A stretch of DNA of 40,285 nt. It comes from an uncultured Bacilli bacterium. GTDB lineage: Bacteria > Bacillota_I > Bacilli_A > RF39 > UBA660. Below, in pieces: positions 13,010 through 15,795 of this stretch. A model generated the notes under the pieces. It worked only from the letters and a program-made list of their open reading frames with translations, was not told where the DNA came from and searched no databases. Every line of letters begins with the position of its first letter. Position 1 is the stretch's first letter. The position numbers and the translations under genes were made by a program. Location of the stretch: the NCBI GenBank assembly GCA_944331935.1, contig CALVIV010000007.1, forward strand, positions 1 through 40,285, written 5' to 3'.

Positions 13010-13173
13010 ATATTATCACTCCAAACTTCTTATATATTAACTTTATCATATTTATTTATCAGTTACTAGTTAATTTAGAGTTTTCTTGAATAGGAATAAC
13101 ACTAATTCTAATAATATTCATATAAAGCTTCATTCCTTTCACTTCGTTCAAGGCACACATAGGAATTAAAACC

Positions 13174-13201
13174 TTGAACTAAATTTATTTTCCCATATAA
13201 T
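13174..13201 (+). promoter_or_regulatory. Promoter in the IS110 left end for the bridge RNA
   Basis: TTGAAC (13174-13179), 16-base spacer, TATAAT (13196-13201). A start about seven bases downstream (near 13208) coincides with the beginning of the 9-bp closing stem of the RNA at 13211. Confidence 0.7.
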
Positions 13202-13207
13202 AACAGT

Positions 13208-13401
13208 CATGAAGGAGTGTGTACTACAAAGCACGGAAGGAGGAGTTGCAGACTTCCTGTAACTCTTGGGATTAAACCAGTATATAAAGCAGTGCAAATG
13301 CAGTTGTTTCAAGCACACATAAGTAGTTCCTTTGAGACTGTAGATTAATCATTGACTTTAGTTAATTCTTAGTGTTAACTGCATAGACAACTCACTCCTT
13401 C
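13208..13401 (+). ncRNA. Putative IS110 bridge RNA
   Basis: The region folds by eye into a nested structure. An outer stem pairs GAAGGAGTG (13211-13219) with CACTCCTTC (13393-13401). A 5' hairpin of 9 bp with one wobble pairs 13243-13251 with 13257-13265 around the loop ACTTC. A second closing stem pairs ATGCAGTT (13298-13305) with AACTGCAT (13377-13384). Inside it lie two hairpins: 13307-13337 with a 19-nt loop, and about 13342-13369 with a 13-nt loop. This layout (5' stem-loop, target loop, donor loop) and the length near 190 nt match the described bridge RNA of IS621. Loop 1 carries GCACACATA, identical to the left flank 13153-13161. Loop 2's 3' side (13362-13369) is complementary to the left end 13162-13169. 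Ends of the transcript are inferred. Confidence 0.75.
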
Positions 13402-13430
13402 AAAAATATTTTGAAAGGAAGGGTTTATTT

Positions 13431-14717
13431 ATGGAAGTTATTTATCCAAAAGTATGTGGAGTTGATGTTCACAAAACTTTTATTGTCGCAGTTATTTGTG
13501 ATTCAACTAACCAAATACCTAAATATCTTAAAAAACGTTTTTCTACCTTTAATAACAGTTTAATTGGTTTTAGAGAATGGCTTTTAGAAAACGACTGTCA
13601 AAATGTATGTATGGAATCTACCGGCAAGTATTATATTCCTGTATACAATGCATTAGAAGGTTTTATTTCTAATGTCGTCGTTGCCAATCCTAAATGGGTT
13701 AAATGCATCAAAGGTGAGAAAGACGATAACAAGGATGCAAAATGGATTGCAGACTTGTTTAAGTTAGGTATTGTTCGTTCTAGTTTTATTCCTTATAAAG
13801 ACTTTAGAGTCTTAAGAGAATTTACTAGATATCTTTACAAACTTACCTGTAATAAAACATCTGAAAAGAATAGGTTTATTAATGCTCTTACTGTTGGTAA
13901 TTGCAAACTTGATATGGTTTTCTCTGATATCTTTGGTAAATCTAGTCAAGATATCATTGATATCATATTAAATAATGATTCTTTTTCAGATGAAGATATT
14001 ATAAATTGTCTTCGTAAAAATTGCAAATCATCTAAAGATGACATTATATCTTCTATTACTGGTATTACTTTTACTAATGAACAAAAACTAAGAATTAAAC
14101 ATATCAAAGATCACATTGATTATTTAACTAACGAAATTAATGATTTAAGAGAAACTGTTGATACTTTAGTTGCTCCTTATGAAGATTATATTAATCTTCT
14201 TATGATAATTCCTGGTATTGATAGAAATTCTGCAATTACTATTATTTCTGAAATAGGAACTGATATGTCACAATTTTCTAGTCATCATAGACTTGCTTCT
14301 TGGGCTGGACTCGCTCCAGGTTGTAATGAGTCTGCTGGTAAAAAGAAATCTGTTAAAATATCTCGTGCTGGTGTTTATCTTAAACCTTGTCTAGTTGAGG
14401 TCGCACATAATGCTGTTAAAGATAAAACTAACACTTACTATGCTAATAAATTTAATAAGATTTCTAAACGTCGTGGTAAGAAACGTGCCCTCATTGCTAT
14501 TGCTAGAAAGATTTTAGTTGCTATCTATCATATGCTATCTACTGGTGAGGCTTGGAATCCTTGTGACTTATCATCTAATGAAACCTCTGATAAAGATAGA
14601 ATAAAATATACCAAAAACAACTTTAAACAATCTCTTAAACAATTACTTTCTTTAGGGCTTACATCTGATGAACTATTAGAAATACTTAATCAGAATGCCT
14701 CTATTTCTGATAGTTAA
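13431..14717 (+). CDS. IS110-family transposase (DEDD recombinase)
   Basis: The 428-aa protein has the N-terminal DEDD RuvC-like domain with Asp12 (GVDVHK), Glu62 (CMESTGKYY), and Asp99/Asp102 (KDDNKDAKWIA). The C-terminal Transposase_20 domain has IPGIDRNSAITIISEIG (about residues 258-274) and SWAGLAPGCNESAGKKKS, whose serine is the probable nucleophile. Both domains look complete, without frameshift or stop, so the enzyme may be active. IS110 enzymes excise a circular intermediate and integrate it under guidance of a bridge RNA. The ATG follows AAAGGAAGGG at normal spacing, just after a 7-bp hairpin (13399-13415) at the end of the RNA region. Confidence 0.95.
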   Translation: MEVIYPKVCGVDVHKTFIVAVICDSTNQIPKYLKKRFSTFNNSLIGFREWLLENDCQNVCMESTGKYYIPVYNALEGFISNVVVANPKWVKCIKGEKDDNKDAKWIADLFKLGIVRSSFIPYKDFRVLREFTRYLYKLTCNKTSEKNRFINALTVGNCKLDMVFSDIFGKSSQDIIDIILNNDSFSDEDIINCLRKNCKSSKDDIISSITGITFTNEQKLRIKHIKDHIDYLTNEINDLRETVDTLVAPYEDYINLLMIIPGIDRNSAITIISEIGTDMSQFSSHHRLASWAGLAPGCNESAGKKKSVKISRAGVYLKPCLVEVAHNAVKDKTNTYYANKFNKISKRRGKKRALIAIARKILVAIYHMLSTGEAWNPCDLSSNETSDKDRIKYTKNNFKQSLKQLLSLGLTSDELLEILNQNASISDS

Positions 14718-14738
14718 ATTTTCGACTTAACTTGGGGT

Positions 14739-14777
14739 AAGGGGAAGTCTGCCCTTTTTTAGGTTTTTCCCTAAAAT
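14739..14777 (+). terminator. Hairpins after the transposase gene
   Basis: AAGGG (14739-14743) pairs with CCCTT (14752-14756) and is followed by TTTT; directly after, TTTTAGG pairs with CCTAAAA (to 14777). The first resembles a short terminator; it also lies in the IS right end. Confidence 0.45.
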
Positions 14778-14907
14778 AAATTTAGTTTTATTTTTCAGAT
14801 TAATTCTCCTTTAACACAAAACTTAATGTAATTATACTAATTAATCTATTACTTTTACAAGTATTTACATTTTAATTAGGCGGAATTCCACCGATTTAAA
14901 ATATCTG

Positions 14908-15795
14908 CTATTTATATAGCACTTTATGTACCTGCTTTATCAGTTCCTTTTTTACTCCACTATCTCCTATTAAGGTAATAGAAAAAGTTTTATAACCTAT
15001 TCTATTTATACTAGCACCACAGTGATATACTATCTCATCATCTATAATAAAATATCTATCATGAAATGTATTATTATATATAACAGTTAGGTTTTTATAT
15101 TGTTTATTATATCTTTCTATATCTTGTAATGTGAGTAAATTATTAGATTTAGTTATAATTGTTACATCTGCCTTTAATCTTTTTACAATATCTAATATTG
15201 TATTGTCTGCATAAGCATCTATTATTGTCAGTTTCTTTTTAGCACTATTTAATATTTCTTGTATTTTAGAATAAGCATCATATATTTGTCCGTTAAAATA
15301 GACTTCCGTAGACTTTCTTTTTTCTTCAAACTTTTGAAATGAATCTTCTAATGTTCTAATTTTATCATGATCTTCTAGTACCATATTATATATATATTTT
15401 TGCTCTAACAAATTAGTTGAGACATATTTTCTCATTGCTACAAAAGCATTAATTATTTTAATGCTCATGTTTATTGCCATTTCAGAATGCAATACACTAG
15501 AAAGCATCGCAACACCTTGTTCTGTAAAAACATATGGATTATATCTTCTTCCACCTCTTATGTTTGAGGTTCCAATTTGGAACCTCAAAGCATTATATTC
15601 TTCATCAGTTAATCTAAACATAAAACTTTCAGGAAATCTTGCTATATTCCTTTTTACTGCTTTATTTATATCTTTTGTACCATTTACACATTCGTAAAGT
15701 CTTGCTAAATCACTATCTAGCATCACTTGAACACCACATACTTCATAGATTAAATTTTCTATATCAATATTATCCTTTAGTATAACTTCATTCAA
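14908..15795 (-). CDS. ORF6N-domain protein with PLD-like C-terminus
   Basis: The 295-aa protein starts with an ORF6N domain (about residues 10-115): EVCGVQVMLDSDLARLY, KRNIARFPESFMFRLT, then YVFTEQGVAMLSSVL, a DNA-binding domain common in phages and mobile islands. After a helical linker comes a segment of about 120 residues (SAKKKLTIIDAYAD ... HDRYFIIDD) that resembles half of a phospholipase D-like domain, with an H-x-x-x-x-IID pattern. Such ORF6N proteins are frequent near phage or defence genes. The start is TTG (15793-15795), chosen because AAGGAGG lies ten bases upstream and no in-frame ATG precedes the domain. It sits alone downstream of the IS110 right end. Confidence 0.82.
   Translation of the reverse strand: MNEVILKDNIDIENLIYEVCGVQVMLDSDLARLYECVNGTKDINKAVKRNIARFPESFMFRLTDEEYNALRFQIGTSNIRGGRRYNPYVFTEQGVAMLSSVLHSEMAINMSIKIINAFVAMRKYVSTNLLEQKYIYNMVLEDHDKIRTLEDSFQKFEEKRKSTEVYFNGQIYDAYSKIQEILNSAKKKLTIIDAYADNTILDIVKRLKADVTIITKSNNLLTLQDIERYNKQYKNLTVIYNNTFHDRYFIIDDEIVYHCGASINRIGYKTFSITLIGDSGVKKELIKQVHKVLYK

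What the first reader, a model, noticed from the sequence alone, without database searches (positions are those of the whole stretch)
13208..13401. A readable IS110 bridge RNA with its own promoter
The left end of the IS110 element contains a consensus-like promoter (TTGAAC, 16 bases, TATAAT at 13174-13201) and, starting seven to ten bases downstream, a nested fold: an outer 9-bp stem (13211-13219 with 13393-13401), a 5' hairpin (13243-13265), an inner 8-bp stem (13298-13305 with 13377-13384) and two hairpin loops. The stems and the distance of about 190 bases are directly visible. This equals the layout reported for IS621 bridge RNAs, which are about 177 nt. That this is a bridge RNA of this element is inference.
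Basis: partly seen in the sequence, partly recalled or inferred. Interest (0 to 1): 0.85.

Follow-up and report, generated by a model that had tools for sequence, protein, structure and literature searches.

The report
Bridge RNA aiming at gene starts
This jumping gene carries a guide RNA whose two target-reading stretches spell out a gene's start codon and its ribosome-binding site, so it and its relatives insert just in front of genes; it is a new variant of the recently discovered IS110 bridge RNAs, and it offers an RNA-level explanation of a kind of targeting described in 1997 for IS900.

Summary
13208-13401 is a bridge RNA (bRNA) in the left end of a 1,677-bp IS110 element (13126-14802). 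In 38 relatives 97% of predicted pairs hold and 22 of 33 show compensatory changes. An all-against-all scan found three guides: LTG 13281-13287 matches the left flank (z 9.1), LDG 13341-13347 matches the right end (z 6.4), and RTG 13237-13247 matches the right flank (weaker; permutation p 0.0002). Empty sites in congeneric genomes give the original target, CATAT-AA-ATTCTCCTTT: a reversed start codon plus a reversed Shine-Dalgarno. In 46 of 50 relatives the flanking CAT is the start codon of an ORF of at least 50 aa or one running off the contig, some of them housekeeping genes. Five identical copies in one genome all sit at CATAATA followed by a Shine-Dalgarno complement. The layout does not equal IS621: guide order in the target loop is reversed (as reported for IS1111), the promoter lies inside the left end, and many copies have 10-16-bp subterminal inverted repeats. 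Translation-start targeting is known for IS900; I found no report of its RNA basis. Transcription and transposition were not tested.

The parts
13126..14802 (+). IS110 element, 1,677 bp (left end 13126-13430, transposase, right end to donor core TA)
   Evidence: Ends from alignment of about 50 relatives and from empty sites in congeneric genomes
13119..13125 (+). Left target CATAT (reversed start codon ATG + 2 nt) and target core AA, genomic flank
   Evidence: Uninterrupted as CATATAAATTCTCCTTT in relative L182
14803..14813 (+). Right target ATTCTCCTTTA (reversed Shine-Dalgarno AAAGGAG), genomic flank
13174..13201 (+). Sigma-70-like promoter TTGAAC-16-TATAAT inside the left end
   Evidence: Sequence; conserved in 30 of 37 relatives
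13208..13401 (+). Bridge RNA, about 194 nt; true 5' and 3' ends not measured
   Evidence: Covariance model and pair counts
13211..13219 (+). Outer stem P1, 5' arm (3' arm 13393-13401)
   Evidence: All 7 modelled pairs have compensatory changes
13231..13234 (+). Stem P2 GCAC, closes the target-binding loop (3' arm 13292-13295)
   Evidence: 3 of 4 pairs compensatory, 99% paired
13237..13247 (+). Right target guide (RTG) AAGGAGGAGUU, resembles a Shine-Dalgarno; 9 Watson-Crick + 1 G-U of 11 with the top strand of core+right target; its 3' part overlaps P3
   Evidence: register varies by 1-2 nt among relatives
13243..13265 (+). Hairpin P3 inside the target-binding loop
   Evidence: 97% paired, mostly conserved
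13281..13287 (+). Left target guide (LTG) UAUAUAA, same sequence as CATATAA including target core AA (U opposite G at the first position)
   Evidence: z 9.1 in unbiased scan; 103 of 114 variable bases exact vs 60.7 +/- 5.0 in stratified permutations
13288..13290 (+). Handshake-type guide AGC matching the first bases of the element (13126-13128)
   Evidence: 13289 matches in 37 of 38 relatives (z 7.2)
13298..13305 (+). Stem P4, closes the donor-binding loop (3' arm 13377-13384)
   Evidence: All 8 pairs compensatory
13313..13316 (+). Stem P5 (3' arm 13372-13375)
   Evidence: 99% paired, weakly covarying
13341..13347 (+). Left donor guide (LDG) UAGAUUA, matches right-end CAGATTA 14796-14802
   Evidence: z 6.4, 5-mer matched in 23 of 23
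14796..14802 (+). Left donor CAGAT + donor core TA (right end of element)
13177..13191 (+). Subterminal inverted repeat, left copy AACTAAATTTATTTT (inside the promoter spacer)
   Evidence: 15 bp exact vs shuffled mean 6.7
14773..14787 (-). Subterminal inverted repeat, right copy
13431..14717 (+). IS110 transposase (DEDD + Tnp_20 domains), 428 aa
   Evidence: PF01548 8e-21, PF02371 3e-17; NF033542 211 bits; IS621 in PDB
13126..13140 (-). Outer left end read on the minus strand: GAAAGGAATGAAGCT ahead of the target ATG, possible replacement ribosome-binding site (inference)
   Evidence: Conserved GAAAGGAATG in relatives; in the 45-48% clade TGGAGGAAAA-NN-ATG
14739..14757 (+). Terminator-like hairpin after the transposase

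Best explanation
13208-13401 is the bridge RNA of this IS110 element. The transposase would bind it. In its target loop the LTG reads the complement of a start codon plus four bases (CATNN + core) on the bottom strand, and the RTG reads the Shine-Dalgarno complement on the top strand. In its donor loop the LDG reads the right end (CAGAT-TA). After top-strand exchange, handshake bases would pair with the element's own first bases. The element thereby inserts between the Shine-Dalgarno and the ATG of a gene, always antisense to it, and its outer left end probably offers a replacement ribosome-binding site, so that insertion in front of housekeeping genes is tolerated. Shown from sequence: RNA structure, guide-target and guide-donor matching, insertion site, orientation. 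Inferred: transcription, RNP formation, strand exchange, replacement translation signal.
For: Structure: 22 of 33 pairs compensatory, far above shuffled and slid controls. Guides: LTG is the top hit of an unbiased scan (z 9.1; 94% vs 70%) and beats 20,000 permutations stratified by element type (103/114 vs max 82). LDG z 6.4. RTG best-register p 0.0002, single register p 0.003. Handshake base 37/38. Empty sites: L182 reads CATATAAATTCTCCTTT, and the LTG carries A at the core base where the donor has T, so it matches the target, not the donor. Five identical copies at five sites in one genome (G937) all at CATAATA + Shine-Dalgarno complement. Two copies with identical RNA in G538 (L040, L041) both at CATTATAA + CCTCC. 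In 14 copies of a 48%-identical element in G937, guide changes accompany target changes, e.g. L156 GGCAGAG with TGCAGA, L155, L145. 46 of 50 flanking CATs start an ORF of at least 50 aa or one running off the locus.
Against: No RNA was seen. RTG covariation is weak because all targets are alike there, its register shifts by 1-2 nt, and its 3' part lies in the P3 stem. No right donor guide was found. Relatedness inflates covariation z-scores; only the LTG test was stratified. The window's own replacement Shine-Dalgarno stands 12 nt from the ATG, which is long.
Confidence: 0.93

Rival explanations
1. The conserved left end is a cis-acting regulator (5' leader or attenuator) of the transposase, not a guide; start-site insertion reflects survival of harmless insertions only.
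For: The RNA lies directly upstream of the transposase with no terminator between them, so it is probably co-transcribed.
Against: A leader would not match the flanking genome base by base in varying ways. Survival selection cannot explain why identical copies share CATAATA, nor guide changes that accompany target changes.
Confidence: 0.03
2. The LTG match is a by-product: the element copied a piece of its left junction into the RNA region (gene conversion), so the match records past insertion and does not direct it.
For: LTG plus handshake bases reproduce the left junction product (CATAT-AA-AGC) contiguously.
Against: LDG and RTG match other DNA ends on other strands. Five identical copies at five sites share the guide-defined 7-mer. 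The match is placed in a covarying internal loop as in IS621.
Confidence: 0.03
3. The Shine-Dalgarno-like stretch 13236-13245 is not a target guide; any element aimed at start codons by its LTG will have a Shine-Dalgarno next to it by default.
For: Per-position RTG covariation is weak (z 3.3, N 23) and its register varies.
Against: Own guide beats permuted guides (p 0.0002 all; 0.0004 and 0.0014 in two clades apart). CATATAA occurs 22 times in the 40-kb window, so a second specificity is needed. L156 has a non-Shine-Dalgarno guide with a matching non-Shine-Dalgarno target.
Confidence: 0.1

Closest known systems
IS621 bridge RNA (IS110 group; PMC11208160, PMC11208158)
   Same: bRNA in the left end upstream of a DEDD/Tnp_20 recombinase; target and donor loops; guides include a dinucleotide core; no target duplication; handshake bases on the 3' guide of the target loop
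   Different: Guide order in the target loop reversed; core TA (target AA tolerated) instead of CT; promoter inside the left end instead of across the RE-LE junction; outer stem encloses the RNA; target is a translation start instead of a REP element
IS1111 group seekRNAs (PMC11187229)
   Same: Top-strand match lies 5' of the bottom-strand match; subterminal inverted repeats of 10-16 bp in many copies (7-17 bp in IS1111)
   Different: The RNA is upstream of the transposase (left end), not downstream
IS900 of Mycobacterium avium subsp. paratuberculosis (Doran 1997, cited in PMC8141618)
   Same: IS110 family member inserting at translation initiation signals, motif CATGNNNNNNTCTCCTT: start-codon complement then Shine-Dalgarno complement
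   Different: IS900 bRNA not described in the papers found; IS900 has an antisense hed ORF, none evident here; host phylum differs
ISEc21 (IS110 type, PMC11187229)
   Same: Upstream non-coding region gives the guide RNA
   Different: Opposite guide order; target lies inside IS3 transposase genes

Membership tests
IS110 family | Recombinase with DEDD RuvC-like domain and Tnp_20 domain | tested here: met
   PF01548, PF02371, NF033542, PDB IS621
IS110 family | Site-specific insertion without target duplication | tested here: met
   Empty site L182 against the window: no bases duplicated
IS110 family | Excision as a circle | not testable with these tools
   Needs reads or PCR; a tandem pair L141/L142 is only compatible with it
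Bridge RNA | Conserved structured RNA in a non-coding end | tested here: met
Bridge RNA | Loop with two guides matching left and right target on opposite strands | tested here: met
   LTG strong, RTG weaker
Bridge RNA | Loop with two guides matching left and right donor | tested here: inconclusive
   LDG found, RDG not found
Bridge RNA | Transcribed and bound by the recombinase | not testable with these tools
   Only a conserved promoter
IS110 group (as against IS1111) | bRNA in the left end, left end longer than right end | tested here: met
   Left end 305 bp, right end 85 bp
IS110 group (as against IS1111) | Bottom-strand match 5' of top-strand match in the target loop (IS621, ISEc21) | tested here: not met
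   Order reversed
IS110 group (as against IS1111) | Promoter formed across the RE-LE junction | tested here: not met
   bRNA promoter at 13174-13201, 48 bp inside the left end, conserved; a further junction promoter was not excluded
IS1111 group | Subterminal inverted repeats of 7-17 bp | tested here: met
   15 bp in the window; 10-16 bp in 15 of the 29 relatives tested (window included), absent in several subclades
IS1111 group | bRNA in the right end | tested here: not met
   It is in the left end

The most novel reading that the evidence does not exclude
A widespread Bacillota clade of IS110 elements (RF39-like and other MAGs, Clostridia, Thomasclavelia, Roseburia, Enterococcus, Lactococcus) carries a bridge RNA programmed for the translation start signal itself (start codon + Shine-Dalgarno), a target present before nearly every gene, and replaces the ribosome-binding site it splits; its mix of IS110 features (left-end RNA) and IS1111 features (guide order, subterminal repeats) makes it a form between the two groups.
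Probability: 0.5. Interest if true: 0.75.

Novelty: new variant of a known kind. Interest (0 to 1): 0.62.

Why it matters
It ties a 1997 observation, that IS900 targets translation initiation signals, to an RNA-guided mechanism that can now be tested. It shows natural reprogramming among near-identical elements, including two or more guides in one genome. Aiming at a signal shared by most genes, with weak sequence demand on each side, is a different strategy from REP or single-site targeting, and is a naturally relaxed bridge-RNA system. The reversed guide order with a left-end RNA does not fit the published two-group scheme and bears on how IS110 and IS1111 arose. Relatives on Enterococcus and Lactococcus plasmids make bench tests feasible.

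Tried and rejected
Rfam: no match in the window. Viral contigs: no relative. Near-identical plasmid copies: none. RDG: searched on both strands over the first bases of the left end, no convincing diagonal. I considered that the Shine-Dalgarno-like stretch pairs with 16S rRNA or is a ribosome-binding site for a peptide, and rejected it because it varies with the target and sits in a closed loop. RTG at a single fixed register: only weak, so variable registers were tested openly. A first attempt at the left-end/RNA repeat statistic used a wrong register and was redone. A minus-strand promoter in the left end to drive the target gene: no scan hit there. The three other IS110-type relatives sampled from the genus (L002, L003, L017, and their cousins) do not carry this RNA.

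Full report
Check of the observation. On its own the fold is only moderately stable (z -2.5), and promoter-like hits in this AT-rich region are no more frequent than chance, so the claim needed comparison. The ORF 13431-14717 is an IS110 transposase, with IS621 and ISCro4 as the only solved relatives by sequence.

Relatives. A genome scan gave 54 loci with related transposases, mostly uncultured Bacilli and Clostridia; searches by kinship added more. Blastn similarity stops at about 13117 on the left and 14802-14812 on the right, so the promoter and the RNA lie inside the element.

Structure. In 38 distinct left ends RNAalifold predicts 33 pairs, 22 with changes on both sides. Named-structure counts: 97.3% of cells paired against 88.1% in shuffles and 28-42% when arms are slid; 141 doubly changed cells against 37. 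A new 4-bp stem P2 (13231-13234/13292-13295) closes an internal loop that holds hairpin P3. The covariance model finds the RNA in the left ends of 45-55%-identical relatives (E down to 1e-33), weakly in a few (E about 0.01), and not in the other IS110 groups sampled. It also finds it in Roseburia, Enterococcus and Lactococcus plasmid copies. The internal promoter is kept in 30 of 37.

Guides. All RNA columns were scanned against all junction positions in both pairing senses. For the left flank the best diagonal of the whole scan is RNA 13282-13288 (94% matched, 70% expected, z 9.1). For the right end of the element it is RNA 13341-13347 (up to 100% vs 91%, z 6.4). For the right flank the only pair-sense diagonal near the top is RNA 13240-13245 (z 3.3) (single positions). 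Relatedness is a concern, so the LTG test was repeated with flanks permuted only among elements of the same left-end type: 103 of 114 variable target bases match exactly, permutations give 60.7 +/- 5.0 with a maximum of 82 in 20,000. The RTG was tested on 50 guide/flank pairs: own pairs beat permuted pairs (best of four registers p 0.0002; the register that puts RNA UU on the core p 0.003), and separately in two clades (p 0.0004, 0.0014). The RNA base just 3' of the LTG (13289) matches the element's own second base in 37 of 38 copies. In IS621 the corresponding position of the target loop is the handshake guide that pairs with the donor after strand exchange (PMC11208158). I did not find the right donor guide.

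Target and junctions. The left flank of nearly all copies ends in CAT and the right flank carries CCTCC-like sequence. The reading is a gene on the opposite strand: Shine-Dalgarno, element, ATG. In 46 of 50 left junctions that ATG opens an ORF of at least 50 codons or one running off the contig; by their N-termini (my reading) these include glyceraldehyde-3-phosphate dehydrogenase, lactate dehydrogenase, RluD, YbaB and CarD-like proteins. In two annotated plasmids an opposite-strand CDS ends at the left junction. Empty sites exist in seven congeneric genomes; the closest (L182) reads ATTCATATAAATTCTCCTTTACC. The window copy therefore sits in CATAT-AA-ATTCTCC, with target core AA on the left and donor core TA on the right, and nothing duplicated. 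The LTG carries the A of the target core, not the T of the donor. The gene behind the window's target is a 20-codon ORF conserved in those relatives, which is why it looked like an exception.

Natural experiments. In G937 five identical copies share one guide (UAUAAUA) and all five sit at CATAATA followed by TATCCCC, ATCACCTC, TCTCCTTG, GAACCTC and GCCTCCTG. In the same genome 14 copies of a 48%-identical element, core TT, carry several guides that change with the flanks. Two copies with identical RNA in G538 sit at different sites sharing CATTATAA and CCTCC.

Comparison with known systems. By recombinase, position of the RNA, loops, guides and handshake base this is an IS110 bridge RNA (PMC11208160, PMC11208158). 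It departs from IS621 and ISEc21 in guide order: here the top-strand match is 5' of the bottom-strand match, as reported for IS1111 seekRNAs (PMC11187229). It also has IS1111-like subterminal inverted repeats: 15 bp in the window, 16 bp of quite different sequence at a similar place in L053, absent in other subclades. So it is a member of the IS110 family, but neither published group fits it fully. I could not see the figures of those papers, so I cannot exclude that reversed order was shown there. Targeting of translation starts is known for IS900 (motif CATGNNNNNNTCTCCTT, PMC8141618, citing Doran 1997). Neither bridge-RNA paper searched mentions IS900 or start-codon targeting, and my literature searches found no RNA explanation; the library holds open-licence papers only.

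What remains inference. Transcription, RNA processing, binding, the replacement ribosome-binding site (clear in the 45-48% clade as TGGAGGAAAA-NN-ATG, weaker in the window) and how the split gene is transcribed.

Noticed in passing
window 13153-13161 and 13312-13320: The left-end DNA 28-36 nt inside the element repeats, on the same strand, a stretch of the donor-binding loop (GGCACACAT / AGCACACAT); the motif changes together across the clade (CACACAT, CACAAAT, CACAAAC, CACAAC; 3.41 vs 2.75 of 4 variable bases, not corrected for relatedness). Unexplained.
   Followed up: partly
window 13059-13121, minus strand; L177-L184: A 20-codon ORF (MNIIRISVIPIQENSKLTSN) with a good Shine-Dalgarno is conserved in frame in seven relatives; in L183 about 190 further codons lie inside it.
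   Followed up: partly
window 13177-13191 and 14773-14787: 15-bp subterminal inverted repeat whose left copy lies between the -35 and -10 of the bRNA promoter, so binding there could regulate bRNA transcription.
   Followed up: partly
L141/L142 (G937): Tandem copies: one element inserted in the right junction of another at GATTA-TA, as if the LTG tolerated the donor-like site.
   Followed up: partly
L133, L136, L138 (G946): Three identical related transposases at a 3,582-bp spacing, apparently a tandem array; ends not resolved.
   Followed up: no
window 14908-15795: ORF6N-domain gene beside the element belongs to a large paralogous family in this genus, many hits per genome.
   Followed up: no
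L045, L064: Two elements whose LTG lacks the start-codon complement (AGGATAA) sit in sites without CAT (TTACAGGATAA) and have a non-Shine-Dalgarno RTG (GAAACC / AAAACC): natural reprogramming to another target.
   Followed up: partly
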